Part shown: piece by piece, positions 17,081 through 49,592 of the stretch
How the letters are laid out: the number at the start of each line of letters is the position of its first letter
Position numbering within the stretch: position 1 is the first letter of the stretch
Origin: Xanthomonas rydalmerensis
GTDB lineage: Bacteria > Pseudomonadota > Gammaproteobacteria > Xanthomonadales > Xanthomonadaceae
Reading direction: 5' to 3'
Assembly (NCBI RefSeq): GCF_033170385.1
Contig: NZ_CP126170.1
Span: forward strand, 768,001-832,000
DNA: 64,000 nucleotides
Position numbers and translations under genes: made by a program
Notes under the pieces: generated by a model
Databases searched by the model: none
What the model was told of the DNA's origin: nothing
The model's input: the letters and a program-made list of their open reading frames with translations, nothing else

Positions 17081-17094
17081 TTGGATCGATTCGA
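17081..17094. promoter_or_regulatory. putative LacI-type operator upstream of GH92 gene 1
   Basis: TTGGATCGATTCGA matches the perfect palindrome TTGGATCGATCCAA (found at 39881) at 12 of 14 positions. The centre is CG, as in most LacI-family operators. It lies between the divergent LacI gene and GH92 gene 1, 16 bases before the GH92 ATG. Confidence 0.55.
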
Positions 17095-17109
17095 TCTGGG
17101 GAGCCTGCC

Positions 17110-19461
17110 ATGCGTAGCTCGAGGATGCTGGGCGGCGCCGCCGCACTGCTGCTGGCCGCGCTGTGGCCGACCGCGCCCGCCGTCGCGGCACCTGAGGCCA
17201 AGGTGGGCGAGCGCGCGGTGGCAGCGGTGGATCCCTTCATCGGCACCGGCGGCGAGGGCCACACCTATCCCGGCGCCACGGTGCCGTTCGGCATGGTCCA
17301 GCTGAGCCCGGACACGCGCATCCAGCCGCGCAAGGACGCCTACGGCTGGGCGGCAGGCTACCGCTACGACGACCGCAGCCTGGTCGGCTTCTCGCATACG
17401 CATTTCTCCGGCACCGGCCACTCCGACCTGGGCGACGTGCTGCTGATGCCGATCAGCGGCACGGTTCGGCTGGAGCGCGGCGACCCGGACAAACCCGGCA
17501 GCGGCTACAGCGCGCGCTTCCGCCACGACGACGAGCGCGCCGAGCCGGGCTACTACGCGGTGACCCTGGACGACTACAAGGTCCGCGCCGAACTCACCGC
17601 CAGCCCCCGCGTCGGCGTGCATCGCTACACCTATCCGGCCGGCCAGCCGGCGCACGTGCTGCTGGACCTGCGCACGAGCCTGTACGACTACCCGGGCAAG
17701 ATCAGCTGGTCGCGGCTGCGCCTGCGCGCCGACGGTACGGTCACCGGTTTTCGCGAGACCCGCGGCTGGGCGCCGGGGCGGCAGCTGTACTTCGCCCTGC
17801 GCTTCTCGCAGCCGCTGCGCGGCCACGCCTTCCACAACACCGAGCAGGACATTCCCTACAAGGGCTTCCCGCCGCCGGGCGACAACGACCCCACCCAGCG
17901 CGCGCAGATCGAAGGCCGGCAGCTGGTGGGGTCGTTCGACTTCGGCAACGCATTGCGCGGGCCGCTGCTGGTCAAGGTGGCGATCTCGCCGGTCAGCGAG
18001 GACAGCGCCATCGCCAACCTCGACGCCGAAGTGCCGGGCTGGGATTTCGACGGCGTGCGTCGCGCCGCGCGTGCGCAATGGGCGCAGGCGCTGGGCGCGG
18101 TGGACGTCGACGCGCCGCCCACCCAGCGCACCCAGTTCTACACCGCGCTGTACCACAGCCTGCTCGGCCCGACCCTGTTCATGGACAGCGACGGCCGCTA
18201 CCGCGGGCCGGACAACGCCGTGCACCAGGCGCAGGGCTACACCCACTATTCGACGTTCTCGCTGTGGGACACCTATCGTGCGCTGCACCCGCTGCTGACC
18301 ATCGTGCAGCCGCCGCAGCGCACCAACGACATCGTCAACTCGCTGCTCGCGCACCAGCGCGAAAGCCCTTACGGCGTGCTGCCGGTGTGGGCGTTCCACG
18401 GCCTGGAGACCTGGTGCATGATCGGCTACCACGCGGTGCCGGTGATCGCCGACGCGTACATGAAGGGCATCCGCGGCTACGACACCGATGCCGCGCTCAA
18501 GGCCATGGTGGCCAGCGCCGACTACGGGCCCTACGACGGCATCGCCCAGTACCGCGAACTGGGCTACGTACCGATCGACGAGGAAGGCGAGGCCGCCTCC
18601 AAGACCCTGGAGTACGCCTTCGACGACTGGACCATCGCGCAGATGGCGCAGGACATGGGCCGCACCGAGGTCGCCGCCACCTTCGCCAAGCGCGCCGGCA
18701 ACTGGCGCAACGCCTTCGATCCGGGCACCGGCTTCATGCGCGCGCGCAAGCGCGACGGCAGCTTCCGCACCCCGTTCGATCCGGATGCCAGCGGCTACGG
18801 CACCGACTACACCGAAGGCAACGCCTGGCAGTACTCCTGGTACGTGCCGCAGGACGTGGCCGGCCTGGCGCGTGCGCATGGCGGCGACGACAAGTTGCTG
18901 GCGCGGCTGGACCAGGTGTTCGACGCCAAGGTCGATCCCAAGGTGTTCGCACACATGGAGGACATCACCGGCTTGATCGGCTGGTACGCGCACGGCAACG
19001 AGCCCAGCCACCACGTCGCCTATCTGTATGCCTACGCCGGGCAGCCGTGGCGTACCCAGGCGCGCCTGCAGCAGATCATGCGCAGCCAGTACGCGGCGCG
19101 TCCGGACGGCCTGGCCGGCAACGACGACATGGGGCAGATGTCGGCCTGGTACGTGTTCACCGCGCTGGGCTTCTACCCGGTGGCGCCGGCCAGCAACCAG
19201 TACATCCTCGGCCGCCCGTTCCTGCCGCGCGCCACGCTGGCGCTGCCCAACGGCAAGCGCTTCACGGTGATCGCCGACGGCCTGGACGATGCGCATCCCT
19301 ACGTCGGCGGCGTCACCCTCAACGGGCGCCCGCTGAATCGCGCGTTCCTGCGCCACGAGGAACTCATGGCCGGCGGCGAACTGCGCTTCACCCTGCAGGC
19401 CACGCCCAACACGGCCTGGGCCGCGGCTGGCGCCGAGCGCGCCTATTCGATGAGCGAATGA
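17110..19461 (+). CDS. GH92 alpha-1,2-mannosidase (exported), copy 1
   Basis: 783 residues from ATG 17110; the upstream GGGGAG is a good ribosome site at a proper distance. It has a cleavable signal peptide (MRSSRMLGGAAALLLAALWP, Ala-rich cut site near residue 30). GH92 hallmarks follow: VDPFIGTGGEGHTYPGATVP, FSHTHFSGTGHSDLGD, FSLWDTYRALHPLL, EGNAWQYSWYVPQD (near residue 570, likely acid region), and GNDDMGQMSAWYVF (near residue 675, catalytic Asp region). GH92 enzymes are calcium-dependent exo-alpha-mannosidases acting with inversion. Location is periplasmic or outer-membrane. It is divergent from the LacI-permease-isomerase operon. Confidence 0.93.
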   Translation: MRSSRMLGGAAALLLAALWPTAPAVAAPEAKVGERAVAAVDPFIGTGGEGHTYPGATVPFGMVQLSPDTRIQPRKDAYGWAAGYRYDDRSLVGFSHTHFSGTGHSDLGDVLLMPISGTVRLERGDPDKPGSGYSARFRHDDERAEPGYYAVTLDDYKVRAELTASPRVGVHRYTYPAGQPAHVLLDLRTSLYDYPGKISWSRLRLRADGTVTGFRETRGWAPGRQLYFALRFSQPLRGHAFHNTEQDIPYKGFPPPGDNDPTQRAQIEGRQLVGSFDFGNALRGPLLVKVAISPVSEDSAIANLDAEVPGWDFDGVRRAARAQWAQALGAVDVDAPPTQRTQFYTALYHSLLGPTLFMDSDGRYRGPDNAVHQAQGYTHYSTFSLWDTYRALHPLLTIVQPPQRTNDIVNSLLAHQRESPYGVLPVWAFHGLETWCMIGYHAVPVIADAYMKGIRGYDTDAALKAMVASADYGPYDGIAQYRELGYVPIDEEGEAASKTLEYAFDDWTIAQMAQDMGRTEVAATFAKRAGNWRNAFDPGTGFMRARKRDGSFRTPFDPDASGYGTDYTEGNAWQYSWYVPQDVAGLARAHGGDDKLLARLDQVFDAKVDPKVFAHMEDITGLIGWYAHGNEPSHHVAYLYAYAGQPWRTQARLQQIMRSQYAARPDGLAGNDDMGQMSAWYVFTALGFYPVAPASNQYILGRPFLPRATLALPNGKRFTVIADGLDDAHPYVGGVTLNGRPLNRAFLRHEELMAGGELRFTLQATPNTAWAAAGAERAYSMSE

Positions 19462-19490
19462 AGGGCACTCCACCTATTCCGGGAGATGTC

Positions 19491-19562: not shown

Positions 19563-20034
19563 GGCCAGCGGCATCCGGCTTGAGTGTGGTGGAAGCAGGT
19601 TCAAAGGTGCTTCGAAGCCGCGCCGGCGCGCATCTGCGTTTGGATGATGGCCCAGCCCTCTGCGTCCGTTGCTGCAGATTCGGTGCGCGACTCACGCGGG
19701 AGCGTCAGCATCGCGTGAATTTCTTGCTGCATCTAGCGGGGTGCGTGGCGGCGCGGAGCGTGCGCCGCCACACCCCGGCACAGCGCGTCGCATCACATGC
19801 ACGCGCATTTAATGTCATCCACACATTCCATTTGCGGCGTTCGTGGTCTTGTGACGCAGCTGCATCGCATCGCGCGGACCGGGTGCGCCGGCACCGTTGC
19901 GATCTCTGGAGCGCGACAGCGTGCAGGCCCATCCCGTTCCGGCGCCGTTGCCATGCGACGGCGCGATCCGCGTTGCCGGCAACGGTGCGCAGAGGCGACG
20001 TGTCCTTTCTCATTCGTCGAACGGGATCTTCCGA
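19563..20034. other. intergenic region before glgE
   Basis: About 470 bases without a supported gene. The glgE frame is open back to 19897, but the conserved protein begins at the ATG at 20035. A GC-rich inverted stretch (GTGGCGGCGC.../GCGCCGCCAC, about 19744-19776) could form a strong hairpin, and it is followed by a less GC-rich part (19795-19850) where a promoter would be expected. No clear -35/-10 pair was found. Confidence 0.4.
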
Positions 20035-23000
20035 ATGCATGTCTGCCTGCTGTCCCCCTTTCCCTCTCACGAAGCGGCCGCGCTGGACGCGGCCATGGCG
20101 GCAGCGCAGGCGCAGGGCTGCGATCACATCGTCCTTCCCAGTCCGTTCGCGCAGGATGCGCAGGGGCGCCTGCACGACCCCGCCGCCCACGACGCGGCCG
20201 GGCTGGCACAGCTGCGGCAATGGCTGCAACGCGCAGAACAGCATGGGTTGCGCGTGCTGCTGGATCTGCGCATCGACGAGATCGGCGGCGGCAGCGGTCT
20301 GCTGCAGGAACATCCGCACTGGTTCCGCGCCCGCAGCTCGACCCTGCCGGACCCACGCGCCGAACGCGCCGCGCCGGACATCGCCCAGGGCCGCTTTGCC
20401 TCCGCCGAGGAGGGTGCGGGGCTGGCGCAGTGGTGGAGCACGCGCCTGCTCGACTGGCTGCATGGCGGCGTGGCCGGTTTCCGTGTGCTGCAGCCGCAGC
20501 GCGTACCGGCTGCGCTGTGGCGCACGCTGATCGGCGAGGTCCATGCGCAGGCACCGCACGCGCGGCTTCTGGCGTGGACGCCCGGGCTGGGCCTGGACGC
20601 CTTGCGCGGCCTGGCCGGTGCCGGCTTCGATGCCGCGTTTTCCTCGCTGGCCTGGTGGGACGGCCGCGGCGATTGGTTCTTCGACGAGGACAGCGCGCTG
20701 CGCGCGCTGGCGCGCCGCGTGGTCGCCACCGTCGATGCCGATGCGCCTGTCGCCTCAGCGCTGCCCCTGCCACGCGCGCAGCGGCAGCGCCTGGCGGCCG
20801 CGTTCGGCGGCGCCTGGGCGATCGCTGCGCAGGACATCCTGACGGAGCACGCGCAGCCCGGGCACGCGCAGCACACGCTGTCCGAGAGCGACGGGTCCAC
20901 GCCGGCAGCGCCGCTGCCCGATGCCAACGCGGCGCTGCGCTTGCGTCCGCTGCTGCGCGACGGCGCCCTGACCGCGTTGGCGGTGGAGCCGCTGGATGCC
21001 GCGCCGTGGCTGGTGCTGCTCAACAGCGATCGCGACCACCTGCTACCGGTGCCGGGCCCGGCGCTGCTGCGCCTGCTGGGCGACAGCGAGGGCCTGCTCA
21101 GCGACCACGGCGAACCGATCCAGGGCGAGCAGGGCGGCACCCTGGAAGCGGGCGAAGTCCGCATCTATCGCAGCCTGCCGGCGCGCCCGGTGCTGACCGC
21201 GGCGCGCGCCCGCACCCCGGCCGAGGTCGCCGCCGGCGAGGCGCGGGTGTGCATCGAGTCGGTGACGCCCTCGGTGGACGACGGCCGCTTCCCGGTCAAG
21301 CGCACGGTCGGCGACCGGATCTGCGTCGAAGCCGATGCGTTCTGCGACGGCCACGATCGCATCGCCGTGGCGCTGCTGTGGCGCGCCGCCGATGCACGCA
21401 CCTGGTCCAGCACGCCGATGCGCGCGCTCGGCAACGACCGCTGGCGTGGCGAGTTCCCGCTGCAGCGCTTGGGCCGCTACGAGTTCCGCATCGAGGCCTG
21501 GCGCGACGTCTACGCCACCACCCATGCCGACCTGGAAAAGAAGCGTGCCGCCGGTACGCTGCTGCCGGTGGACGTGCAGGAAGCGCTGGCCCAGGTCGAG
21601 GCCGCGCGCGGCCGCAGCCGCGGCGCGCTGGCCACCCGGCTGAAGGCCATCACCACGCGCATCGCCCGCACCAGCGACCTGGCCGAGAAGGCGCAACTCC
21701 TGCTCGAACCCGACACCGCCGAGGCGATGGCGCGCGCCGATGCCAAGCCGTTCCGCACCGAGTACCCGATGACCTTCCGGGTCGAGGCCGAACGCCGCGC
21801 CGCGCATTTCGCCAGCTGGTACGAACTGTTTCCGCGCTCGCAGAGCGGCGATCCGCAGCGTCACGGCACGTTCGACGACGTGATCGCGCGGCTGCCGCAT
21901 ATCCAGGCGATGGGTTTCGACGTACTGTACATGCCGCCGATCCATCCCATCGGCGAGAAGAACCGTAAGGGCCGCAACAACGCGGTGACTGCCGAGCCGG
22001 GCGAGCCTGGCAGCCCGTACGCGATCGGCTCGGCCGAGGGCGGGCATACCGAGGTGCATCCGGAGCTGGGCGGGCTGGAAGGGTTTCGCCGCCTGCGCGC
22101 GGCCGCGGCCGAGCACGGCCTGGAACTGGCGCTGGACTTCGCCATCCAGTGCGCGCCGGACCATCCCTGGTTGCGCGACCACCCAGACTGGTTCACCTGG
22201 CGCGCGGATGGCTCCATCCCGTACGCGGAAAACCCGCCGAAGAAGTACCAGGACATCGTCAACGTCGACTTCTACGCCAGCGGCGCGGTCCCCGCCCTGT
22301 GGAACGCGCTGCGCGATGCGGTGCTGTTCTGGGTCAACGAGGGCGTCACCTTGTTCCGCGTCGACAACCCGCACACCAAGCCGTTCCCGTTCTGGGAATG
22401 GCTGATCGCCGAGGTGCGCGGGCGTCATCCGGAGGTGGTGTTCCTGTCCGAGGCCTTCACCCGGCCCAAGCCGATGTACCGGCTGGCCAAGGTCGGCTTC
22501 TCGCAGTCCTACACCTACTTCACCTGGCGTCAGCACAAGGCCGAGCTGCAGGCCTACATCGAGGAACTCAACAGCGGCGTGCCCAGCGAATGCTTCCGGC
22601 CGCACTTCTTCGTCAACACCCCGGACATCAATCCGCTGTTCCTGCAGCACAGCGGGCGCAGCGGGCATTTGATCCGCGCCGCGCTGGCGACCACGCTGTC
22701 CGGGCTGTGGGGCATGTACCAAGGCTTCGAGCTGTGCGAGGCCACGCCGCTGCCGGGCAAGGAGGAATACCTCGACTCGGAGAAGTACCAGTTGCGCGTG
22801 TGGCCCGAGCGCGCGCCGGGCGACATCGTCGACGAGATCACCCGCCTCAACCTGCTGCGCCGCCAGCATCCGGAACTGCAGTCGCACCTGGGCACCCGTT
22901 TCTACACCGCCCACAACGACCAGGTGCTGTACTTCGGCAAGTTCCTCGACGCCGCACACCTGGCGCGTGGCCGCAGCCTGGTGCTGGTGGCGGTGAGCCT

Positions 23001-23192
23001 GGACCCGTACGCGCCGCAGAACGCGCAGATCGAAGTGCCGCTATGGGAACTGGGCCTGCCCGACCACGCCAGCGTCGCCGTGCGCGACCTGTGGGACGGC
23101 CATGATTTCACCTGGCACGGCAAGACCCAACACATCCGCCTCGATCCGTCGCGGCCGTTCGCCTTGTGGCGCATCCGCGCCGGAGTTTCTGC

Positions 23193-23196
<4 letters not shown>
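20035..23196 (+). CDS. glgE: GlgE alpha-1,4-glucan:maltose-1-phosphate maltosyltransferase with N-terminal degenerate GH13 domain
   Basis: 1053 residues, far longer than ordinary GlgE (about 660-700). Residues from about 400 on are Glg[56 protein letters not shown], nucleophile Asp in [18 protein letters not shown] (near 777) and acid Glu in [19 protein letters not shown] (near 806). It extends alpha-glucan from maltose-1-phosphate. Residues 1-390 look like a second, inactive GH13 barrel: [15 protein letters not shown] resembles the GH13 region I strand, and [18 protein letters not shown] resembles the nucleophile strand with Asp lost. The stop overlaps the next start (ATGA). It is first gene of a three-gene operon. 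Confidence 0.93.
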
Positions 23197-26542
<3,346 letters not shown>

Positions 26543-26546
<4 letters not shown>

Positions 26547-38076: not shown

Positions 38077-38100
38077 AGTGCTCCGTATATTCGGAGCACT
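38077..38100. promoter_or_regulatory. TetR operator between regulator and oxidoreductase
   Basis: AGTGCTCCG-TATATT-CGGAGCACT: perfect 9-bp arms with an AT-rich 6-base centre. It lies midway between the divergent start codons at 38055 and 38120. The AT centre may double as a -10 element. Confidence 0.75.
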
Positions 38101-38119
38101 GTTCCGATCAGGATACGCC

Positions 38120-39154: not shown

Positions 39155-39239
39155 GACCTGGATCGCGGCGTCGCCGCCGGCATCGAATGGCTCAGCGGCT
39201 CGGCGATGCGTCAACTGCCGAGCCGCGAACCACGTTGCC

Positions 39240-39596: not shown

Positions 39597-39651
39597 GTGC
39601 GCTCGACGTTGCCAGCAGTCCAGTCAAAAGTGCGAGTGTGGCCATTTTCAT
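39487..39651 (-). pseudogene. signal-peptide fragment, out of frame with the repeat protein
   Basis: ATG 39651 begins MKMATLALLTGLLATSSALA, a textbook signal peptide with an A-L-A cut site. It then reads DTTRYGLVRQHN and runs, in the wrong frame through the first repeat, to TGA at 39487. Skipping one base near the TACGGACTC stretch would join it to DSYGN repeats. Confidence 0.6.
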
Positions 39652-39880
39652 TTGAAACCCCTGTGTGTGGAGCGATCCAGCGCTTGCCAGTGTAGCCGTT
39701 GATCGTCGGTCCGCCAGGGCGATCCATCGCCTTCAATCGCTCCTCGTCGCGTGACGGTTCAGCGTCATCCCTCTTCGTATCCAACGTAACGCGATCGATG
39801 CTGGATCGCGTATCGATCCGCAGACGAACTGTTGCGCAGCAGCATGCAACTCTACAAAAGGCGTGTTACTTCTAGCTCGG

Positions 39881-39894
39881 TTGGATCGATCCAA
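39881..39894. promoter_or_regulatory. perfect palindromic operator, LacI-type
   Basis: TTGGATCGATCCAA, a perfect 14-bp palindrome with central CG, upstream of GH92 gene 2. It is the best copy of a motif also near 17081, 43661 and 49579. Confidence 0.65.
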
Positions 39895-40032
39895 AGCCGT
39901 TGATGCAGCGCATCCTTGGGGGAAACGGCAGGTAGGGATCGCGTGCTGCGAGTTTGCTGACGCCTGCTCTCTGGTCCGCATGCATCTGCGGTCGTGAAGC
40001 GGTGTTGGATGCCGACTTGAGCGGCGATCCCT

Positions 40033-40044
40033 CGGATCGATCCG
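40033..40044. promoter_or_regulatory. second ATCGAT palindrome before GH92 gene 2
   Basis: CGGATCGATCCG, a perfect 12-bp palindrome that shares the GGATCGATCC core of the 39881 site. It lies 98 bases before the ATG at 40143, near where a promoter would lie. Confidence 0.5.
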
Positions 40045-40142
40045 GTCCACGTTGCGTGCCTTCACTGCGCGCCGTTGCCACCGGAAGTGCGTGACGCCAC
40101 GCGTCGCGGCACAGCCGACCGAGAGAGTTTGGGGAGCCTGCC

Positions 40143-43100
40143 ATGTCAATCCGCCCGCGCTTTGCGCACCTGCCCGAGTCTTCGCGCCGGTGGTTGGCGT
40201 CCGTCGCGGCGTCGGCGCTGTTGTGCGCAGGCACCGGCGCGGCATGCGCGGCCGATGCTGGCTTCGCGTCCTCGTTCGAGCAGGGCGAACCTGCGCCTGC
40301 ATCGGTCACGCAATCAGACAAGACAGGCGTCCAGGTTGCCATTGGCAACGGCCCCAAGCAGCCCTACGCGGCCAAGGCCGGCATGGGCTACACCGGCCTG
40401 CATGCGCTGCACTATCGCGCCACTGCGGCCGGGCGCGCACAGCTGTTTGCGGTGGATCTGCCGGTGGAGCCGGACACGGTGCTGTCGTGGCTGGTACTGC
40501 CGGAGATCGTCGATGGCGATACGGTGGCCTCGACCGGCGTGGCGGTGGATCTGCTGTTCGACGATGGCCGCCGCTTGTCCGAGTTGGGCGTGGAAGATCA
40601 GCACGGTGCGCTGGTCAATGCGGCCGGGCAGTTGGCGTCGAAGACGCTGTATCCGCAGCAGTGGGCGTTCAAGCAGGTGCGGCTGGGCGAGGTGGCGGCG
40701 TTGCGCGGCAAGCGCGTTCGCGCGATCGAGCTGCAGGTACAACCTGGCGCCGGCAAGGTGGCGGCAGGCTGGATCGACGATGTCGCGGTGCGCCGCGAGG
40801 CAGCACCGCAGGCGGCGCGGCGGCCCAGCGATGAGGTGGTGACTACGCGCGGGACGCAGTCCAACGGCACGTTCTCGCGCGGCAACAATATTCCGGCCAC
40901 GGCGATGCCGCATGGTTTCAATTTCTGGGTGCCGGCGACCGATGCGGGGACGCTGAGCTGGCTGTACCGTTGGAACGAACAGAATGGCGACGACAACCGG
41001 CCGCGTTTGCAGGCGCTGTCGATCAGCCATGAGCCCAGTCCATGGATGGGCGATCGCCAGACCTTCCAGGTGATGCCGTCATCCACGCGCGGCGTGCCGG
41101 AGGCGGATCGCGCGAAGCGCGCGCTGTCTTTCAGTCACGACCGCGAGGAGGCGCGCCCGCATCTGTACCGGGTTGACTTCGACAACGGTATCCGTGCGGA
41201 GCTGGCGCCGAGCGAGCGTGCGGCGATCTTTCGCTTCCGCTTTCCCGAGGGCGGCGATGCCAATCTGCTGTTCGACAACGTCGACGCGCGCGGCGGGCTG
41301 ACCCTGGACGCGGCGACGCAGACGCTGCGCGGCTACTCGGAGACGCGCAGCGGCCTGTCCAACGGCGCCACGCGCCTTTTCGTGTATGCGCGCTTCGACC
41401 GTCCGTGGACCGCCAGCGGCAAGATCGCCACGGGGCGCCCGACCGGCTACGTGAAGTTCGCGCCGGGCGCCGATCGCACCGTGGTGATGCGCATCGCCAC
41501 CTCGCTGATCTCGGTGGAGCAGGCGCAACGCAATCTGCAGCAGGAGATCGGCGACGCCGGGTTCGAGCTGGTGCGGGCGCGTGCGCAGGACGCGTGGGAC
41601 GCGGTGCTGGGGCGCGTGCAGGTGCAAGGCGCCAGCCACGACCAGCGGGTCACGGTGTACTCCAATCTGTATCGGCTGTTCCTGTATCCCAACATCGCCC
41701 ACGAGAACGTCGGCGATGCGGCGCATCCGGATTGGCGGCATGCCGACCAGAACAGTTGGTCCAAGGACAACATGGGCGGCGATGCCGAGCGCACCTCGGC
41801 GCCGATCGTGCCGGGCAAGGTCTACGTCAACAACGGCTTCTGGGACACCTTCCGCACCAGTTGGCCGGCGTATGCGCTGTTCGCGCCGGAGCAAGCGGGC
41901 GCGATGATCGATGGCTTCCTGCAGCAGTATCGCGACGGCGGCTGGGTGGCGCGCTGGTCTTCGCCGGGCTATGCGGACCTGATGGTCGGCACCAGTTCCG
42001 ACGTGGCGTTCGCCGATGCCTGGCTGAAGGGTGTGCGGGGGTTCGATGCCCACGAGGCCTATGCGGCGGCGCTGCGCAATGCCACGGTGGTGCCGCCGGT
42101 GTCGAATGTCGGCCGCAAGGGCCTGGCGCGCTCGATGTACCGCGGCTACGCCGCCAACGACGTGCACGAAGGGCTGTCGTGGACGCTGGAGGGCGCGCTC
42201 AACGATTTCGGCCTTGCGCAGATGGCGCAGGCGCTGGCTGATAAGGAACAGGATAAGCAGCAGGCGCAGCGCTACCGCGAGGAAGCCGAATACTTCCGGG
42301 CGCGGGCCACTGATTACGTGTTCTTGTTCGACCCCGCCACCCGCTTCTTCCGCGGTCGCACGCCGGCTGGCCAGTGGAGTACGCCTGCGTCGAAGTTCGA
42401 TCCGCGGGTTTGGGGCGGCGACTACACCGAGGCCAATGCCTGGACCTTCGCCTTCACCACGCCGCACGACGCTGCGGGCTTGGCCGGGTTGCTGGGGGGC
42501 GAGGATGCGATGGCGGCGCGGCTGGACGAACTCTTCGCCACGCCGGAGACCGCGGACAAGCGCTTCGCCGGCAGCTACCGCAGCGTCATCCACGAGATGA
42601 CCGAGGCACGCGACGTGCGCATGGGTATGTACGCGCACAGCAATCAGCCCTCGCACCATCTGCCGTGGATGTACGTGGCGGCGGGACAGCCGTGGAAGAC
42701 CCAGCGCCTCACCCGCGAGGTGCTGCGCCGGTTGTACCTGGGCAGCGAGATCGGCCAGGGCTATCCGGGCGACGAGGACAATGGCGAGATGTCGGCGTGG
42801 TACTTGTTCGCCATGCTCGGGCTGTATCCGCTGCGCATGGGTGCGCCGGAGTACGTGATCGGCTCGCCGGCGTTTCCGCGGGCCGAGGTCGATCTCGGCA
42901 AGGGCCGCAAGCTGGTGGTGATCGCGCGCAACAACAGTGCGCGCAATGTGTACGTGCAGTCGCTCACGCTCAACGGCAAGCCATGGAACAAGGCCTGGCT
43001 GCGCCACCAGGACATCGCCGACGGCGCCACGTTGGAGTTCGTGATGGGTGCGACGCCCTCGCGCTGGGGCAGCGGCGCGGACACGTTGCCGCCATCGTTG

Positions 43101-43535
43101 ACCCCGTCGGGCAGCGCGCCGCAGGGACTGGAGGATGTGGCGTCGCAGGCCGTTGCGGTGTCGCTGGAGGGACAGCCCAAGGCCGCGGCCCTGATCGACG
43201 ATGATGCGACGACGGCGCTGCCGCTGCCGGTCGGTGCCAGCGTCGACCTGCGCTTCGCGACGGCGCAGCGCGCCACGCACTACACGCTGACCAGCGGCGA
43301 CGCCGCGCTGTCCGGCCTGGCATGGACGCTGGAGGGCCGCGGCGCCGACGGCGCATGGAGCACGCTGGATCAACGGCGCGCGCAGGCCTTCGCCTGGGCG
43401 CGGCAACTGCGGCCGTTCCGCATCGCCAAGCCTGGCGCCTACAGCGCGTACCGCCTGCGCCTGGATGCGGGCGAAGGCGTTTCGCTCGCCGAGATCGAGC
43501 TGTTGAAGCCGATGACGCGGCAGGCCGCGCCGTGA
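40143..43535 (+). CDS. GH92 alpha-mannosidase with extra N- and C-terminal domains, copy 2
   Basis: 1130 residues, longer than copies 1 and 3. A signal peptide (WLASVAASALLCAGTGAACA) is followed by an extra N-terminal beta-rich module of about 190 residues (FASSFEQGEPAP to GWIDDVAVRREA). Then comes GH92: SNGTFSRGNNIPATAMPHGF, NNGFWDTFRTSWPAYALF, GDYTEANAWTFAF (near 762), GDEDNGEMSAWYLF (near 876). After about residue 980 a discoidin-like (F5/8 type C) module follows (LEDVASQAVAVSLEGQPKAA to VSLAEIELLK). The accessory modules suggest sugar binding. The 16 bases TGGGGAGCCTGCCATG at its start are identical to those of GH92 copy 1. Confidence 0.93.
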   Translation: MSIRPRFAHLPESSRRWLASVAASALLCAGTGAACAADAGFASSFEQGEPAPASVTQSDKTGVQVAIGNGPKQPYAAKAGMGYTGLHALHYRATAAGRAQLFAVDLPVEPDTVLSWLVLPEIVDGDTVASTGVAVDLLFDDGRRLSELGVEDQHGALVNAAGQLASKTLYPQQWAFKQVRLGEVAALRGKRVRAIELQVQPGAGKVAAGWIDDVAVRREAAPQAARRPSDEVVTTRGTQSNGTFSRGNNIPATAMPHGFNFWVPATDAGTLSWLYRWNEQNGDDNRPRLQALSISHEPSPWMGDRQTFQVMPSSTRGVPEADRAKRALSFSHDREEARPHLYRVDFDNGIRAELAPSERAAIFRFRFPEGGDANLLFDNVDARGGLTLDAATQTLRGYSETRSGLSNGATRLFVYARFDRPWTASGKIATGRPTGYVKFAPGADRTVVMRIATSLISVEQAQRNLQQEIGDAGFELVRARAQDAWDAVLGRVQVQGASHDQRVTVYSNLYRLFLYPNIAHENVGDAAHPDWRHADQNSWSKDNMGGDAERTSAPIVPGKVYVNNGFWDTFRTSWPAYALFAPEQAGAMIDGFLQQYRDGGWVARWSSPGYADLMVGTSSDVAFADAWLKGVRGFDAHEAYAAALRNATVVPPVSNVGRKGLARSMYRGYAANDVHEGLSWTLEGALNDFGLAQMAQALADKEQDKQQAQRYREEAEYFRARATDYVFLFDPATRFFRGRTPAGQWSTPASKFDPRVWGGDYTEANAWTFAFTTPHDAAGLAGLLGGEDAMAARLDELFATPETADKRFAGSYRSVIHEMTEARDVRMGMYAHSNQPSHHLPWMYVAAGQPWKTQRLTREVLRRLYLGSEIGQGYPGDEDNGEMSAWYLFAMLGLYPLRMGAPEYVIGSPAFPRAEVDLGKGRKLVVIARNNSARNVYVQSLTLNGKPWNKAWLRHQDIADGATLEFVMGATPSRWGSGADTLPPSLTPSGSAPQGLEDVASQAVAVSLEGQPKAAALIDDDATTALPLPVGASVDLRFATAQRATHYTLTSGDAALSGLAWTLEGRGADGAWSTLDQRRAQAFAWARQLRPFRIAKPGAYSAYRLRLDAGEGVSLAEIELLKPMTRQAAP

Positions 43536-43660
43536 GGCAGCGGCGACGCAGCGTACGCGTGCTGTTGCGCGCACGTTGCGGTGGACATGTCCTGCCCTAG
43601 ACCTGTTGCGCGGCAGCATGCGTTGCGAGGAACGCTGTGGTACTTAAGTTTTCCACTGCA

Positions 43661-43674
43661 TTAGAACGATCCAA
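43661..43674. promoter_or_regulatory. operator-like site upstream of the TonB-dependent receptor
   Basis: TTAGAACGATCCAA matches TTGGATCGATCCAA at 12 of 14 positions and keeps the right half intact. It lies 157 bases before the receptor ATG. Confidence 0.45.
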
Positions 43675-43830
43675 TTCACTTGGTGCAGGACAGAGGGGGA
43701 ACAACCGCAAGGCCGGCTCGCCGCAATGGCGCCGGATGTTTTCTACAGCGACGCGGAGGCTGCTCGATCCATGGATTGCGCGGTGGCCGTACTCGCGCAG
43801 CCGATCAATCTTTGGGAGAGGATGATTGAA

Positions 43831-46800
43831 ATGAAGTGCATGCCATCCGCGCGCAAGCGCAGCACGCTGTCCGCCGGTATCGCCATCGCGCTGTGCGCGA
43901 CCGCTGCCTCCACCACCGCGTTCGCCCAGCAGGCCGACACCGCGCCGGCGCCCTCCGGTCAGGCCGAACTGGAGGCCAAGAATCTGGATGCGGTGACGGT
44001 GACCGGCTACCGCTACGCGATCGAGAAGAGCCTGGAGCAGAAGCGCAACGCCAACGCCGTGGTCGACGTGATCACCGCGGAGGACGTGGGCAAGTTCCCC
44101 GACAAGAACGTGGCCGACGCGCTGCAGCGCGTACCCGGCGTGGTCATCAGCCGCGACGGCGGCGAGGGCAAGAACGTCAGCGTGCGCGGCCTGTCCTCGG
44201 AGCTGGTGCTGACCGAGTTGAACGGCAACTACATCGCCACCGCCGAGTCCAATGGCGACCCGACGCGCTCGTTCAACTACACGCTGCTGCCGTCGAACCT
44301 GCTGGGCAGCGCGGAACTGTACAAGACGCCGGAAGCGCGTATCGACGAAGGCGGCATCGGTGGCACGGTGATCCTGCAGACGCGGCGTCCTTTGGAGTTG
44401 GAGCCCAATTCCGGCTTCGTCTCCGCCGAGGGCGTGTGGTCGGATACCAGCAAGAAGACCGACGGCCAGTTCTCCGGCTCGTACTCGTGGCACGACAAGG
44501 ACAACCGCTTCGGCGTGTTCGTCGGCTACACGCAGCAGAAGCGCACTGCGCGCACGCTGAATTCCAGCACCGAGAGTTGGCAGTGGTACGGTCGCGACGA
44601 AGGCGGCCCGGCGGTCGACGTGAATGGCAATCCGTCGGACTTCAATTCGAACTGGTGGGGCGGCACCGGCTTCTGGGATCAGAACGGCAAGTACTACACC
44701 CGCTTCATGATGCCAACGGCGGTCAGCCTGGACGTCAAGCAGGAGGAGCGCGAGCGCAAGGGCGGCCAACTGACCTTCCAGTTCAAGCCCACCGACGACC
44801 TGACCCTGACCGCGAACTACTTCCGCTTCGACCTGTCGCAGAACTCGCAGACCAACACCATCAAGATCCCCGAGTGGAACATCGCCCGCTATTACGGCGA
44901 CGGCAACTGGCGCGGCGGCCGCCTGCTCGACGGGCTGCGCTTCGATCCCAGCGGCACCATCGTCACCGGTGCCGACTACAGCCTGCATCCGGGCAAGGCG
45001 TATTACTGCAGCGAAGCCCAGGCCGCCGCGGCCGGCCTGCCGCCCGGCGGCTGGGGCTCGGACGACTGCACGGTACCGACGCCGCAGATCACCGGCAGCT
45101 ACAACATCGAGAAGTCGCTGTCGCAGACGGTGGACCTGGGCGGCGAATGGCGCGGCGAAAAGGTGGACGTGGCGTTCAAGGCCGGCCGCACCTGGGCCAA
45201 GGGCGGGCCGGAGCTGCAGTTCTCCCTGCCGATCAAGCCGCGCCGCCAGAACGCCGACGGCAGCTGGAGCAACGGCAACTTCGCCAGCGCCTGGGACCTG
45301 ACCGGCACGCCGTCCATGACGTTCTCGCCGGAGCTGATGCAGAACCTGCGCGATGGCCTCCTGCAGGTCGACCTGGGTTCGACCAGTTCGTCCTGGACCC
45401 GCAACACCAACCAGCAGCAGTACGCGCAGATCGATACCACCTGGCACATCGACGGCGATTTCTTCGACTCGCTACAGTTCGGCCTCAAGCGCCGCGACGG
45501 CGGCGTCCATCGCAACACCGGCAACAATTATTGGGTGTGCCCGGGCACCGACCCCAGCGATTACAACAACCGTTACTGGAACGGGCGCTGCAACGCGCTG
45601 GCCACGCAGTTCTCGCCGGATCTGTTGTTTTCCATGAACAACCTCGCCGGCGGGGGGAGATCCAGCGCGTTCCCGGCGATCAACTTCCCCGGCTACATCG
45701 GCTACTTGAACAACACCTACGGCGCGATGCAGACCCGTAGCGAAGACAACTTCGTCTACAACGTCGACGAGAAGATCTACTCCACCTACCTGCAGCTCAA
45801 CTTCCACACCGAGCGCCTGCGTGGCAACGTCGGCGTGCGCGTCGCGCGCACCGGCCAGCATGCCGATTCCACCGACAAGGTGACCGCGTACAACGACTAC
45901 TTCTTCGACGGCGCCGACGGCAACCCGCTGGCCTGCCAGCAGGGCGCTGCCATGCCCACCGGCGCGCCGGCCGATACCTACTGCGGCACCGAGGGCTACT
46001 GGCGCTTGTCGGACACGCAGCAGCGCAACGAGTCGTTCGTGGTCAGCGGCCTGGACCGCAACTACACCGACGTGCTGCCGAGCTTCAACCTGGCCTATGA
46101 CCTGACCGAGAACCTGCTGCTGCGCGCTGCTGCGTCGAAGGTGATCGCGCGGCCGAGCTACAACGACATCGCCGCGCCGGGCAGCCTGGAGTACTACAGC
46201 CCCGAATACGTGGCCGACCGGCGCCTGACCGGCGGTGCGAGCGAGCAGGGCTGGTACGGCTCGGGCAGCAACAAGAACCTGCAGCCGTACAAGGCCACCC
46301 AGTACGACCTGGGGCTGGAGTGGTACTTCCAGCCGGGCTCGGTGGCGGGCGTGGGACTGTTCCGCAAGAACGTGGAGAACTTCGCTGTCGACGTGGTCAG
46401 CGACGTGAACATGATGATCAATGGGCAGGCGGTCACGGTGCAGAACTACAGCACCCAGGCCGGCGGCCAGGATGCGGTGTCGCAGGGCGTGGAGCTGTAC
46501 GCGCAGCACACGCTGTCCTCCGGGCTCGGCGTGCAGTTCAACTACACCTACAACGATGCCAGCAAGGCGGCGGTGCGGCTGGAGGATGGCACCGAGGTCG
46601 GCAAGACCTCCATGCCCGGCAGCGCCAAGAACCAGACCAACCTCACCGTGTTCTACGAGACCGACCGCCTGCTGCTGCGCGCCTCGTACAACCGTCGCGG
46701 CGAGCTGGTGCAGGGCCTGGTCAACGGGCTGAACGTCTACGAGGAGCCGTACTACCAGATCGATGTGAACGCGGCATACAACATCACCCCGGCGCTCAGC

Positions 46801-46932
46801 CTCACCGCGTCGGTGCTGAATCTGACCAAGCAGGAGTCGCGCCAGCATCTGGGCGACGATACCCGGGCACGCTTCTACACAGGTGGCTACGCAGGCCGGT
46901 TGGCGTACCTTGGGTTGACCTACAAGTTCTAG
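43831..46932 (+). CDS. TonB-dependent outer-membrane receptor (mannoside locus)
   Basis: 1033 residues from ATG 43831; GGGAGAGG sits at the right distance for this ATG and too close for the one at 43822. It has a signal peptide (STLSAGIAIALCATAASTTA-FAQ), then a TonB-box-like LDAVTVTGYR. The plug domain has VDVITAEDVGKFPDKNVADA, LQRVPGVVISRDGGEGKNVS and VRGLSSELVLTELNG, and a long beta-barrel ends in LAYLGLTYKF with the typical terminal Phe. This is the TonB-dependent receptor subtype (TIGR01782-like) found at xanthomonad carbohydrate-use loci. It likely imports oligosaccharides across the outer membrane, here between two GH92 genes. Confidence 0.95.
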   Translation: MKCMPSARKRSTLSAGIAIALCATAASTTAFAQQADTAPAPSGQAELEAKNLDAVTVTGYRYAIEKSLEQKRNANAVVDVITAEDVGKFPDKNVADALQRVPGVVISRDGGEGKNVSVRGLSSELVLTELNGNYIATAESNGDPTRSFNYTLLPSNLLGSAELYKTPEARIDEGGIGGTVILQTRRPLELEPNSGFVSAEGVWSDTSKKTDGQFSGSYSWHDKDNRFGVFVGYTQQKRTARTLNSSTESWQWYGRDEGGPAVDVNGNPSDFNSNWWGGTGFWDQNGKYYTRFMMPTAVSLDVKQEERERKGGQLTFQFKPTDDLTLTANYFRFDLSQNSQTNTIKIPEWNIARYYGDGNWRGGRLLDGLRFDPSGTIVTGADYSLHPGKAYYCSEAQAAAAGLPPGGWGSDDCTVPTPQITGSYNIEKSLSQTVDLGGEWRGEKVDVAFKAGRTWAKGGPELQFSLPIKPRRQNADGSWSNGNFASAWDLTGTPSMTFSPELMQNLRDGLLQVDLGSTSSSWTRNTNQQQYAQIDTTWHIDGDFFDSLQFGLKRRDGGVHRNTGNNYWVCPGTDPSDYNNRYWNGRCNALATQFSPDLLFSMNNLAGGGRSSAFPAINFPGYIGYLNNTYGAMQTRSEDNFVYNVDEKIYSTYLQLNFHTERLRGNVGVRVARTGQHADSTDKVTAYNDYFFDGADGNPLACQQGAAMPTGAPADTYCGTEGYWRLSDTQQRNESFVVSGLDRNYTDVLPSFNLAYDLTENLLLRAAASKVIARPSYNDIAAPGSLEYYSPEYVADRRLTGGASEQGWYGSGSNKNLQPYKATQYDLGLEWYFQPGSVAGVGLFRKNVENFAVDVVSDVNMMINGQAVTVQNYSTQAGGQDAVSQGVELYAQHTLSSGLGVQFNYTYNDASKAAVRLEDGTEVGKTSMPGSAKNQTNLTVFYETDRLLLRASYNRRGELVQGLVNGLNVYEEPYYQIDVNAAYNITPALSLTASVLNLTKQESRQHLGDDTRARFYTGGYAGRLAYLGLTYKF

Positions 46933-47071
46933 GCTGCAGTGTGTCGTGCCCATGCCTGCCGCGCGGCGGACGGCATGGGCGCGACGGTCCGGCGACGGCC
47001 GGGCTACCGTTTTCGCCGTCCACGACTGCGCCGTCGCGTTTACGCAGCCGTTCACCACAGGATCCCATCGC

Positions 47072-49516
47072 ATGACGTCGTCCTTGCTGCCTTGCGTGCT
47101 GCGCACGTTCGCCCTGTCTTTGCTGCTGGCCACGCCGGCGCTTGCCGCCGCGCCGCGGCCCAGTGCCGAGGTCAACACCTTCATCGGCAGCAAGGACGAC
47201 GGCAACACCTTCCCCGGCGCGTCCGCCCCGTTCGGGATGATCCAGGTCAGCCCGATCGGTGCGCACTACGCCGGCTGGCGCTACGACGACCCGCAGATCC
47301 GCGGCTTCGGCCATTCCTTCCTGTCCGGCGCCGGCTGCTGGGAGCAGGGCGGGCAGGTCTCGGTGCTGCCGGTGACCGGGCGCATCGGTCCCGGCGGCGA
47401 TTTCGACACGGCCGATCCGAAGGCGTTCGACCATACCCGCTACGGCGCACGCTACCAGCACGACGGCGAGCGCGGCCAGGCCGGCTACTACAAGGTGCGG
47501 CTGACCGATTACGGCGGCATCGACGCCGAAGCCACTGCGCTGACCCGCGCCGCGGCCGAGCGCTATACCTTTTCCACCTCGGGCGACGGCCACGTGCTGG
47601 TCAACATCGGCCAGGCCAACGCCCGCCACACGGTCACCGGCAGCACCCTGACCGTGGTCGGCGACCGCGTGGTGGAAGGCAAGCTGGTCACCCAGAGCTT
47701 CTGTGGCGGCCACCAGTACACCACCTGGTTCCGCCTGGAATTCGACCGCCCGTTCAAGGCCTTCGGCACCTGGGGCGAGGCCGGTGGCGTGCCGGGATCG
47801 CGCCATGGCATGGAGGGCGAGGGCAAGCCCAGCGGCGCGTGGCTCACCTTCGACTTGAGCAAGGGCCGTGCGGTCACCGCCATCTCGGCGATCTCGCACG
47901 TGGATGCCGAGGGCGCGCGCAACAACCTGCGCAGCGAGGGCATGGCCAATGGCCGCCTGCTCGGCTTCGACGCCATGCGCGCCCGTGCACAGCAGGCCTG
48001 GGACAAGGAACTGGCCAGCGTGCGCGTGCGCGGCGGCAGCGGCGACGACCGCGTGGTGTTCTACACCGCGCTGTACCACTCCCTGTTGCAGCCGCTGACC
48101 GGCAGCGACGCCGATGGCCGCTACCGCGGCTACGACGACGGCATCCACCACGCCGACGGCTGGACGTACCACGAGTTCTTCTCGCTGTGGGACACCTACC
48201 GCGCGCAGAACCAGTTGCTGGCCCTGCTCAAACCGCAGCGCGCCGCGGACATTGGCCGTTCGATCCTGGCGATCAACGCGCAAGGCGGTTGGCTACCGCG
48301 CTGGGGCTATGCCAACTTCGAGAGCAACGTGATGACCGGCGACCCGGTCACGCCGTTCCTGGTCGACCTGTGGCGCTTCGGCGCGCTGCAGGGCCGCGAG
48401 GCCGAGGCCTACGCGGCGCTGCGCCGCAACGCCTTCGAGATGCCGCCGTTGAATTCGCGGCACGCCGGGCGGTCCGGCAACGCCAACTACCTGGCGCAGG
48501 GTTTCGTGCAGTACGACCGCGCGTTCCCGTCCAAGGGCATGGACGTCGACCCGCACCACGGCGGCTCGGCGACGCTGGAGTACGCGCTGGCCGACTGCGC
48601 GCTGTCGACGATGGCCGGCGCGCTGGGCCACGCCGAGGACGCGGCGGTGCTGAACCGCCGCGGGCGCAACTGGCGGACGGTGTGGGATCCGTCGGTGCGT
48701 GACACGGACACCGGCTTCACCGGCTTCCCGCGGCCGCGCACCGAAGATGGCGCGTGGTACACGCCGTCGGATGGGCATTACGATCCGCGTTCGCAGCACG
48801 GCTTCCACGAAGGCACGGCCTGGCAGTACCAGTGGCTGGCGCAACAGGACGTGCCGGGCCTGGTGGAGGCGATGCACGGGCCCGAGCAGGCCGCGCGCCG
48901 CCTGGACGCGTTCTTCGCCTACGATGCGCTGCTGGCCGACCCGGCCGGCGCTGCGCGCAAGGAATGGGTGGTGGGGCCTTACAGCTACTACAGCCAGTTC
49001 CGCTACAACCCGAACAACGAGCCCGACCTGCACGCGCCGTGGATGTACACGCTGATCGGCCAGCCGTGGAAGACCAGCGCCGTGCTGCATGCGGCGCAGA
49101 CGTTGTTCACCAATGCGCCGAACGGCGTCACCGGCAACGACGACCTGGGCACGATGTCGGCGTGGTATCTGTTCAGCGCCATGGGCCTGTATCCGGCGGT
49201 GCCGGGCACCGGGCAGTTCCTGCTGCACGCGCCGCGCTTCTCGCGTGTCGAACTGGACGTGGGGCCGGGTCGTACGCTGCGTATCGACGCGCCGCAGGCC
49301 GGTGACGGCAAGCTGCGCTACGTCGGTGGCGTGTCGCTGGATGGCCGCGCACACGCGCCGGTGTGGCTGGACTGGTCGCAGTTGCATCAAGGCGGCCGCC
49401 TGCGTTTCGACCTGCGCGATGCGCCGCAGCCGCAGGGTTGGGGGACGCAGCCGCAGGATCTGCCGGTGTCGCCGTGCGCGGCGCCGCCGTCCGCCGCCAG
49501 CCTGGGCTGGCGCTAA
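47072..49516 (+). CDS. GH92 alpha-mannosidase (exported), copy 3
   Basis: 814 residues from ATG 47072. Signal peptide VLRTFALSLLLATPALA-AA. GH92 features: VNTFIGSKDDGNTFPGASAP, FGHSFLSGAGCWEQGG, FFSLWDTYRAQNQLLALL, HEGTAWQYQWLAQQD (near 579), GNDDLGTMSAWYLF (near 690). It lies 139 bases after the receptor gene and is probably co-transcribed. It differs from copies 1 and 2 around the active site (CWEQGG, TYHEFFSLWDTYR), so a different mannosidic linkage (1,2/1,3/1,4/1,6) is possible. The Pro/Ala-rich tail is unremarkable. Confidence 0.93.
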   Translation: MTSSLLPCVLRTFALSLLLATPALAAAPRPSAEVNTFIGSKDDGNTFPGASAPFGMIQVSPIGAHYAGWRYDDPQIRGFGHSFLSGAGCWEQGGQVSVLPVTGRIGPGGDFDTADPKAFDHTRYGARYQHDGERGQAGYYKVRLTDYGGIDAEATALTRAAAERYTFSTSGDGHVLVNIGQANARHTVTGSTLTVVGDRVVEGKLVTQSFCGGHQYTTWFRLEFDRPFKAFGTWGEAGGVPGSRHGMEGEGKPSGAWLTFDLSKGRAVTAISAISHVDAEGARNNLRSEGMANGRLLGFDAMRARAQQAWDKELASVRVRGGSGDDRVVFYTALYHSLLQPLTGSDADGRYRGYDDGIHHADGWTYHEFFSLWDTYRAQNQLLALLKPQRAADIGRSILAINAQGGWLPRWGYANFESNVMTGDPVTPFLVDLWRFGALQGREAEAYAALRRNAFEMPPLNSRHAGRSGNANYLAQGFVQYDRAFPSKGMDVDPHHGGSATLEYALADCALSTMAGALGHAEDAAVLNRRGRNWRTVWDPSVRDTDTGFTGFPRPRTEDGAWYTPSDGHYDPRSQHGFHEGTAWQYQWLAQQDVPGLVEAMHGPEQAARRLDAFFAYDALLADPAGAARKEWVVGPYSYYSQFRYNPNNEPDLHAPWMYTLIGQPWKTSAVLHAAQTLFTNAPNGVTGNDDLGTMSAWYLFSAMGLYPAVPGTGQFLLHAPRFSRVELDVGPGRTLRIDAPQAGDGKLRYVGGVSLDGRAHAPVWLDWSQLHQGGRLRFDLRDAPQPQGWGTQPQDLPVSPCAAPPSAASLGWR

Positions 49517-49578
49517 GTCCGTGCCGTCTCGCGGCAGGCGCGCGCAGCCGATGGTTTAGGCTGGGCGCCTCGCCCGAA

Positions 49579-49592
49579 GGGAATCGATCCGA
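49579..49592. promoter_or_regulatory. weak operator-like site over the LacI copy 2 start
   Basis: GGGAATCGATCCGA matches the 14-bp palindrome at 10 of 14 positions, core ATCGATCC. It overlaps the A of the ATG at 49592, so a bound protein would block expression. Autoregulation is a guess. Confidence 0.35.

What the first reader, a model, noticed from the sequence alone, without database searches (positions are those of the whole stretch)
17081..49592. One 14-bp palindrome links the split mannoside locus into a LacI regulon
TTGGATCGATCCAA is perfect at 39881, matches 12/14 at 17081 and at 43661, and 10/14 at 49579. A shorter perfect relative (CGGATCGATCCG) is at 40033. All lie upstream of GH92 gene 1, GH92 gene 2, the TonB receptor or LacI copy 2. 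The two LacI proteins are paralogues with near-identical recognition helices (GVSRATVSLVLR), so they may share or compete for these sites.
Basis: partly seen in the sequence, partly recalled or inferred. Interest (0 to 1): 0.7.

Follow-up and report, generated by a model that had tools for sequence, protein, structure and literature searches.

The report
Mannoside regulon with carbon-storage-sensor boxes
In Xanthomonas and its relatives, genes for harvesting mannose-containing sugars appear to be switched by a sugar repressor and also, through a second conserved DNA site, by the protein that senses the cell's stored polyester (PHB), which would tie foraging to the state of the food store.

Summary
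The palindrome is real. TTGGATCGATCCAA at 39881 is unique in the 5.04 Mb genome; of 7 genome sites with at most 2 mismatches, 3 lie in this window. In 80 loci encoding relatives of the two LacI proteins it occurs 53 times with at most 1 mismatch, against at most 1 for each of 59 control palindromes. A matrix trained on other genera ranks 39881, 43661, 17081 and an overlooked site, 16985, as the window's top four. 49579 looks like a decayed autoregulatory site; 40033 is probably chance. Both LacI proteins are old paralogues of one mannoside repressor, here called ManR.

New: a second 17-bp palindrome lies in the three GH92/TonB operator promoters (17036, 39829, 43603). It resembles the published box of PhaR, the PHB-sensing regulator, which this genome encodes. 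Its centre is exactly 30 bp upstream of an extended -10 (TGnTA) in all three, and 30-31 bp in 35 of 38 box-bearing divergent promoters of other genera: class II activator geometry. Such boxes also precede the PF09361 phasin gene here and in relatives. Best reading: ManR represses, PhaR activates. No binding was tested.

The parts
13250..14536 (-). AGE-family enzyme, D-mannose-isomerase-like (mannose to fructose, inferred)
   Evidence: PF07221 E 7.5e-109; NCBIfam D-mannose isomerase model 216.8 bits, below its cut-off of 600
14628..15932 (-). GluP/FucP-type sugar MFS transporter
   Evidence: TIGR01272 345.7 bits, cut-off 202.55
15929..16978 (-). LacI1 (ManR paralogue 1; GTG start)
   Evidence: translation; PF00356 over cut-off; groups with Lysobacter/Luteimonas regulators, 14 rows, support 100/99
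16985..16998 (.). ManR operator on the LacI1 side, TTAGACCGGTTCAA (new)
   Evidence: 4th best window score with a matrix from other genera; identical in the window and 7 of 7 LacI1-type regions of other Xanthomonas genomes
17036..17052 (.). PhaR-type box ATTTTGCAGTGCAGCAA, centre 30 bp upstream of TGnTA
   Evidence: 1 mismatch to published YTKNTGCRNYGCANMAR; identical in the window and 7 of 7 such regions; spacing
17081..17094 (.). ManR operator of GH92a, TTGGATCGATTCGA
   Evidence: identical in 5 of 8 Xanthomonas genomes, 1-2 changes in the other 3
17110..19461 (+). GH92 alpha-mannosidase a
   Evidence: TIGR01180 685.4 bits
39829..39845 (.). PhaR-type box CTGTTGCGCAGCAGCAT, centre 30 bp upstream of TGnTA
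   Evidence: 2 mismatches to published consensus, one in the core; identical in L021-L023
39881..39894 (.). ManR operator of GH92b, perfect palindrome
40032..40045 (.). TCGGATCGATCCGG, probably a chance match
   Evidence: low matrix score; not palindromic in L021 and L022
40143..43535 (+). GH92 b
   Evidence: TIGR01180 504.5 bits
43603..43619 (.). PhaR-type box CTGTTGCGCGGCAGCAT, centre 30 bp upstream of TGnTA
   Evidence: 2 mismatches to published consensus, one in the core; kept in 8 of 9 aligned relatives, lost in L023
43661..43674 (.). ManR operator of the TonB receptor, TTAGAACGATCCAA
43726..46932 (+). TonB-dependent receptor (TonB-Xanth-Caul type); conserved start probably near 43822
   Evidence: TIGR01782 844.5 bits; start inferred from alignment
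46946..49516 (+). GH92 c, downstream of the TonB receptor; no operator found before it
   Evidence: TIGR01180 499.9 bits
49579..49592 (.). Decayed autoregulatory operator before the LacI2 ATG (tentative)
   Evidence: weak here (rank 17); ATGGATCGATCCA[GCT] at the same place in L024, L026-L029; absent in L031 and L033
49592..50767 (+). LacI2 (ManR paralogue 2)
   Evidence: PF00356 and Peripla_BP; Xanthomonas/Pseudoxanthomonas clade

Best explanation
The two loci form one mannoside (probably N-glycan mannose) regulon. Two old LacI-family paralogues (ManR; LacI1 and LacI2) bind operators of the type TTRGAWCGWTCYAA. These lie over or just past the predicted transcription starts of GH92a, of GH92b and of TonB-GH92c-LacI2, and just before the LacI1 gene of the LacI1-MFS-isomerase set. 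They repress until a mannose-derived inducer appears (operators: strong sequence evidence; binding, repression and inducer: inferred). Each of the three GH92/TonB promoters has a second input: a PhaR-type palindrome centred 30 bp upstream of an extended -10, i.e. near -42, the class II activator position. PhaR, the regulator that PHB granules titrate away, would bind there when the store is empty and help RNA polymerase at a promoter with no recognisable -35. Foraging for mannosides would then need two conditions: sugar present and carbon store low. The box and its fixed geometry are shown by sequence; that PhaR is the binder, and the sign of its effect, are inferred.
For: ManR: the 14-mer occurs 11/53/126 times at 0/1/2 or fewer mismatches in 80 loci, against at most 1/1/14 for each of 59 control palindromes. 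Regulator and site co-occur in 198 genomes: both 64, regulator only 13, site only 18, neither 103, Fisher p 2e-22. The top four matrix hits of the window are promoter sites. Of 180 strong operators in 74 loci, the assigned neighbour is GH92 for 72, TonB 37, LacI 37, a second TonB family 13, PfkB 2, other 8, none 11. PhaR: the element consensus CATGYTGCANYGCRNRAT was derived between operators and resembles published PhaR motifs. The published core TGCRNYGCA lies 50-54 bp from an operator 36 times (0.37 expected per bin; a box between two operators can count twice); it is 43-62 bp from an operator in 25 of 74 loci, the scrambled core in 0. PF07879 in 9 of 9 genomes searched; own protein passes the PhaR equivalog cut-off. 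Published-consensus boxes with at most 1 mismatch lie 46-88 bp before the phasin (PF09361) match in 6 of 7 genomes with a hit, own genome included; the mannoside-derived element itself, at most 1 mismatch, in 3 of those 7. Box centre to TGnTA is 30 bp in the 3 window promoters and 30-31 bp in 35 of 38 box-bearing promoters, GH92 side only. Core + fixed gap + TGnTA: 54 hits in the 80 loci plus window, 42 with an operator downstream; gap changed by 5-10 bp: 5-8 hits, 0-1 with operator.
Against: No DNA-binding or expression data. Boxes at 39829 and 43603 have 2 mismatches to the published consensus, one inside the core, so they are not among the hits; 19 positions of this 64 kb have at most 2 mismatches, so sequence match alone is weak, and position and conservation carry the argument. 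Box consensus searches of whole genomes are only mildly above the reversed control, and in one of 9 genomes below it (4 against 5). None of 5 strong hits of the other phasin family, PF05597, has a box with at most 2 mismatches within 250 bp upstream, and few lie beside phaR. L023 has lost the TonB box. 13 of 77 regulator-bearing genomes have no site with at most 1 mismatch; 18 have a site but no regulator at E 1e-70. 13 of 80 loci have no site with at most 2 mismatches. Three further LacI-relative regions fetched from two Xanthomonas genomes (L194-L196) lack the arrangement. PhaR is a repressor at well-studied targets, and a box at -42 could block polymerase. Loci are related by descent, so counts are not independent.
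Confidence: 0.64

Rival explanations
1. ManR repression as above, but PhaR acts as a second repressor: its box covers the -35 region and it is lifted off when PHB accumulates.
For: PhaR is a repressor at phasin promoters in several bacteria (passages). The box would overlap the -35 region.
Against: A single box at a fixed 30-31 bp from an extended -10, with no consensus sigma-70 promoter, is typical of class II activation (general knowledge). The PF09361 phasin promoters here carry two boxes 26-27 bp apart in 5 of 7 cases, a different layout. PhaR is an activator at R. eutropha phaP3 (passages).
Confidence: 0.22
2. Plain LacI mannoside regulon; the mid-promoter palindrome belongs to another, unknown regulator that happens to share PhaR's motif.
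For: No binding data. Motif cores of different regulators can coincide. No test by PhaR absence was possible, since all 9 genomes searched have it. No box upstream of 5 PF05597 phasin genes.
Against: The element found in mannoside promoters also lies at PF09361 phasin promoters, the kind of gene that is PhaR's canonical target.
Confidence: 0.22
3. The palindromes are chance or generic motifs of a GC-rich genome.
For: The short core GGATCGATCC with at most 1 mismatch occurs 285 times in the genome.
Against: Composition-matched control palindromes give almost nothing; sites are conserved across genera at promoters.
Confidence: 0.02

Closest known systems
LacI-family local sugar regulons, ManR groups of the RegPrecise collection (PMC4052901: abstract and passages seen)
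   Same: LacI-type repressor next to target genes; mannose/mannoside genes; even palindrome with central CG (the last recalled as typical of the family)
   Different: Two old paralogues share one operator type in one genome. The paper lists 5 orthologous groups for mannose and mannosides; whether this lineage is among them I could not check
PhaR (AniA) PHB-responsive regulon: R. eutropha phaP1/phaP3 (PMC12849132, passages), S. meliloti (PMC12542648, passages)
   Same: Box consensus, PhaR gene, PF09361 phasin promoters with boxes in the same genomes
   Different: Target here is an outer-membrane mannoside-harvesting system, with one box at a fixed -42-like place beside a LacI-type operator; two of the window's three boxes depart from the core by one base
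Xanthomonas oryzae phaR mutant study (PMC6304360: start of abstract and passages of a term search)
   Same: Shows that a Xanthomonas has phaR with pleiotropic effects
   Different: The term search found no 'mannos', 'TonB' or 'binding site' in the main text
CRP-type class II activation (recalled)
   Same: Activator box at fixed distance from the -10, in place of a -35
   Different: PhaR-type box; only geometry is compared, no function

Membership tests
LacI/GalR regulators | N-terminal LacI HTH plus periplasmic-binding-like effector domain | tested here: met
   LacI2: PF00356 and Peripla_BP families; LacI1: PF00356, 66% identical to LacI2 over 335 residues
LacI/GalR regulators | even palindromic operator with central CG at target promoters | tested here: met
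LacI/GalR regulators | binds the operator, released by a sugar | not testable with these tools
   needs DNA-binding assay
ManR-type mannoside regulon | targets are mannoside uptake and breakdown genes | tested here: met
   GH92, TonB, sugar MFS, mannose-isomerase-like; in single relatives tested, PfkB kinase, GH2 with mannosidase domains, GH47, GH20, asparaginase_2
ManR of RegPrecise | orthology with a listed ManR group | not tested
   database not available
PhaR regulon | genome encodes PhaR | tested here: met
   PF07879 in 9 of 9 genomes; own protein TIGR01848 176 bits, cut-off 109.45
PhaR regulon | promoter holds the PhaR palindrome | tested here: met
   1 (17036), 2 and 2 mismatches to the published consensus, which its authors accept up to 3; the two 2-mismatch boxes miss the core by one base
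PhaR regulon | phasin genes of the same genome carry the box | tested here: inconclusive
   PF09361: 6 of 7 with a box of at most 1 mismatch, the seventh with 2; PF05597: 0 of 5
PhaR regulon | PhaR binding and response to PHB | not testable with these tools
   needs EMSA and phaR/phaC mutants

The most novel reading that the evidence does not exclude
Across Lysobacteraceae and Rhodanobacteraceae, mannoside/N-glycan harvesting is governed by an ancient two-input promoter. PhaR, titrated by PHB granules, is the class II activator; ManR is the repressor. Cells take up glycan mannose only when the sugar is present and the storage polymer is depleted. The same free PhaR pool represses phasin and activates foraging.
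Probability: 0.45. Interest if true: 0.75.

Novelty: new variant of a known kind. Interest (0 to 1): 0.58.

Why it matters
If true, a storage-polymer sensor would directly control an outer-membrane sugar-harvesting system in a large group of plant- and soil-associated bacteria. I saw no such link in the listings I could read (these are capped lists of open-licence papers, 12 of 1,610, 12 of 14, 15 of 71 and 10 of 25 shown). It would explain why these promoters keep a second palindrome at a fixed distance from the -10, give candidate direct targets for phaR beyond storage genes, and offer a natural test of PhaR as an activator. The ManR pair sharing one operator type is also a ready case for how paralogous repressors diverge.

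Tried and rejected
40033 as an operator: low matrix score, not palindromic in L021 and L022. 39667 (GTGGAGCGATCCAG, score 9.2) was not pursued. PhaR-like hits inside lacI genes (16881 in the window), and hits near 14.3-14.6 kb in several loci, were read as coding coincidences. Most off-locus matches of the element (23 of the 30 loci kept) lie inside predicted ORFs, so whole-genome matches alone mean little. PhaR boxes beside phaR itself: few core hits. Consensus sigma-70 promoters: none in the three regions. Looping by paired operators was considered: spacings of the 39 divergent pairs cluster at 90-93 (15) and 98-104 (23), one at 96, but trial periods of 10 to 12 fit about equally; the fixed box-to-minus-10 distance explains the geometry better. 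Specificity split between paralogues: LacI2-type loci have ATCGAT centres in 73 of 93 sites, Lysobacter-type LacI1 loci AACGAT in 21 of 26, the rest 52 of 61; the window's sites do not follow this, so no split is claimed here. Off-locus 2-mismatch operators: one lies inside a cytochrome-b-like gene and one between a TonB receptor and a protease-like gene (names by eye), two not resolved. Literature on LacI mannoside regulons: searches gave no paper on this locus in the titles and abstracts listed.
Full report
WHAT WAS CHECKED. The five sites exist as described. The window lies in a single 5,041,847-base contig, at 768001-832000. The nearest named relatives of LacI2 are Xanthomonas sp. NCPPB 1128, X. 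sp. F10 and X. bonasiae; the species of the window itself was not determined. The perfect 14-mer is unique in the genome, and 7 sites have at most 2 mismatches, 3 of them here. The tighter form TTRGAWCGWTCYAA with at most 1 mismatch has only two genome hits, 39881 and 43661, with none for the reversed control. The short core alone is common (285 with at most 1 mismatch, reversed control 10), so the 14-mer carries the signal.

COMPARATIVE TEST OF THE OPERATOR. A scan with both LacI proteins kept the best 80 of 225 related loci. In these the 14-mer occurs 11, 53 and 126 times at 0, at most 1 and at most 2 mismatches; 59 palindromes with the same half-site letters and a central CG reach at most 1, 1 and 14. 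67 of 80 loci have at least one site with at most 2 mismatches. A matrix built from 114 sites of loci outside Xanthomonas was scored on the window: the best four are 39881 (27.95), 43661 (25.88), 17081 (17.12) and 16985 (11.62); 40032 is sixth (7.66) and 49579 seventeenth (1.57). The training sites were chosen by similarity to the 14-mer, so the matrix is not independent of it. Among 198 family genomes, regulator and site co-occur (64 both, 13 regulator only, 18 site only, 103 neither; p 2e-22).

ANATOMY. Of 48 loci outside the LacI2 clade, 43 have a GH92 gene running away from the LacI gene, commonly with a sugar MFS, a PfkB kinase and a mannose-isomerase-like enzyme after LacI (gene calls are my own crude ones). 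Over all 80 loci and the window, 56 operator pairs 80-115 bp apart were found, 39 of them just upstream of LacI. The window's LacI1 locus (13250-19461) has this layout and lies beside rpoD (11199-13076), as in several Lysobacter loci. The LacI2 locus (40143-50767: GH92, TonB, GH92, LacI2) is shared with X. sp. NCPPB 1128, X. bonasiae and several Pseudoxanthomonas. In a tree LacI1 sits in a 14-row clade with Lysobacter and Luteimonas regulators (support 100/99) and LacI2 with Xanthomonas and Pseudoxanthomonas, so the paralogues look old; LacI1 has a long branch (0.79), the outgroups are very distant, and its exact place is less sure. Single related loci tested hold GH2 with mannosidase domains, GH47, GH20 and asparaginase_2 genes, which points to glycoprotein N-glycans as substrate (inference). 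Ten stretches upstream of LacI relatives were fetched from seven other Xanthomonas genomes. The seven LacI1-type ones and the window keep TTAGACCGGTTCAA in 8 of 8, while the sequence around it drifts; the three other copies (L194-L196) lack the arrangement. 49579 has better-kept counterparts directly before the LacI2 start in L024 and L026-L029, none in L031 and L033.

THE SECOND PALINDROME. Aligning promoters showed a further conserved block upstream of both LacI2-locus operators. TGYTGCGCRGCAGCAT without mismatch occurs twice in the genome, at these two places. Between paired operators of other genera a consensus CATGYTGCANYGCRNRAT emerged, 48-50 bp from the GH92-side operator (seven of its positions were forced by the search expression, the others were not). 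It resembles the published PhaR palindromes of Ralstonia eutropha (YTKNTGCRNYGCANMAR, PMC12849132) and Sinorhizobium meliloti, and the CTGCNNNGCAG reported for Rhodobacter sphaeroides (both in PMC12542648), all seen in passages. Used without refitting, the published core TGCRNYGCA lies 50-54 bp from an operator 36 times (0.37 expected per bin); the scrambled core gives 0 and the scrambled 17-mer 0 in that bin. In the 39 divergent pairs the best 17-mer between the operators has at most 3 mismatches to the published consensus in 26, against about 5% of shuffled spacers. In the window the 17036 box has 1 mismatch; those at 39829 and 43603 have 2, one of them in the core.

WHY PHAR. PF07879 is present in 9 of 9 genomes searched, and the own protein passes the PhaR equivalog model. 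In three Lysobacter genomes the element, searched genome-wide with at most 1 mismatch, falls just upstream of the PF09361 phasin gene. PF09361 was found in 7 of 8 genomes searched, one of the 7 below the family cut-off. Six of the 7 have a published-consensus box with at most 1 mismatch 46-88 bp before the domain, the seventh one with 2; five of the 7 have two boxes 26-27 bp apart. The own phasin promoter has TTGTTGCATCGCAGCAG (no mismatch) and ATGTTGCACTGCAACAG 26 bp on; that protein is over the Pfam cut-off but under the NCBIfam one. Against this, none of 5 strong PF05597 phasin genes has a box with at most 2 mismatches within 250 bp upstream. Exact matches of the published consensus number 31 in 9 genomes against 6 for the reversed control, 3 against 1 in the own genome, one of the 3 at the phasin promoter. 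The element with at most 1 mismatch is above the reversed control in 8 of 9 genomes and below it in one. Among the 13 LacI loci of the genome (about 1.5 kb each side of the HTH), boxes with at most 1 mismatch occur in two, one of them LacI1.

GEOMETRY. In all three window promoters the box centre lies exactly 30 bp before the T of an extended -10 (TGnTA). The same holds for the 11 relatives of the GH92b and TonB promoters that I gave to the call, for 6 of 7 other Xanthomonas GH92a promoters (the seventh 29), and for 35 of 38 box-bearing operator pairs of other genera (25 at 30, 10 at 31; the other 17 pairs outside the window had no CATGYTGC box in that place). It is on the GH92 side only; the LacI side has none of 38. 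A twelfth relative, the TonB promoter of L023, was left out of that call and has lost the box. The composite of box core, 22-23 bp and TGnTA occurs 54 times in the 80 loci plus window, 42 of them with an operator downstream; of the window's promoters only GH92a is among them. Changing the gap by 5 or 10 bp leaves 5 to 8 hits with 0 or 1 operator. No consensus sigma-70 promoter was found in the three regions. Operator centres lie 43.5 (GH92a), 50.5 (GH92b) and 56.5 bp (TonB) from the box centre, so in this genome the box is locked to the -10 rather than to the operator (arithmetic on the coordinates above).

MECHANISM. Shown by sequence: shared operators, PhaR-type boxes, fixed spacing, presence of the regulators. 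Inferred: ManR repression relieved by a mannose-derived sugar; PhaR activation when not held on PHB granules. Precedent for PhaR activation exists at R. eutropha phaP3 (passages). Two phasin boxes close together would suit repression there, so one free PhaR pool could repress phasin and activate mannoside harvesting. The sign at the mannoside promoters is the least certain step.

WHAT IS KNOWN. LacI-family ManR regulons are a known kind (PMC4052901: abstract and passages). I saw no paper linking PhaR to mannosidases or TonB receptors in this group; that rests on capped listings and a term search in PMC6304360. Only open-licence full texts were searched, and RegPrecise itself was not available. 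The operator part is thus a new member of a known kind; the PhaR-ManR promoter is a new variant.

Noticed in passing
window 19897-28726: GlgE, trehalose-synthase/maltokinase-type and GlgB genes follow GH92a on the same strand; whether they are co-transcribed with it was not examined.
   Followed up: no
window 39200-39620: Block of repeats, about 120 bases per unit by eye, upstream of the GH92b promoter, overlapping a small minus-strand ORF (39240-39596).
   Followed up: no
window 43726-43830: Alignment suggests the TonB receptor starts near 43822 (conserved GGGAGAGG-ATGATTGAA), not at the first ATG of the ORF.
   Followed up: partly
window 49592-49750: LacI2 carries an Ala/Lys-rich N-terminal extension of about 50 residues before the HTH that LacI1 lacks.
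   Followed up: no
L021-L100: Operator centre differs by regulator clade: ATCGAT in 73 of 93 LacI2-type sites, AACGAT in 21 of 26 Lysobacter-type LacI1 sites, a possible specificity shift.
   Followed up: partly
L024, L025, L027: A tryptophan-halogenase-family gene (PF04820, tested for L024 only) follows the LacI2-type locus in Pseudoxanthomonas.
   Followed up: no
L007 (genome 3512578): Off-locus 2-mismatch operator TTGAATCGATGCAA, matrix score 20.25, between a TonB receptor and a protease-like gene; a possible extra regulon member.
   Followed up: partly
L194-L196: Two Xanthomonas genomes (G111, G186) hold further ManR-like regulators whose upstream regions lack the operator-box-operator layout.
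   Followed up: no
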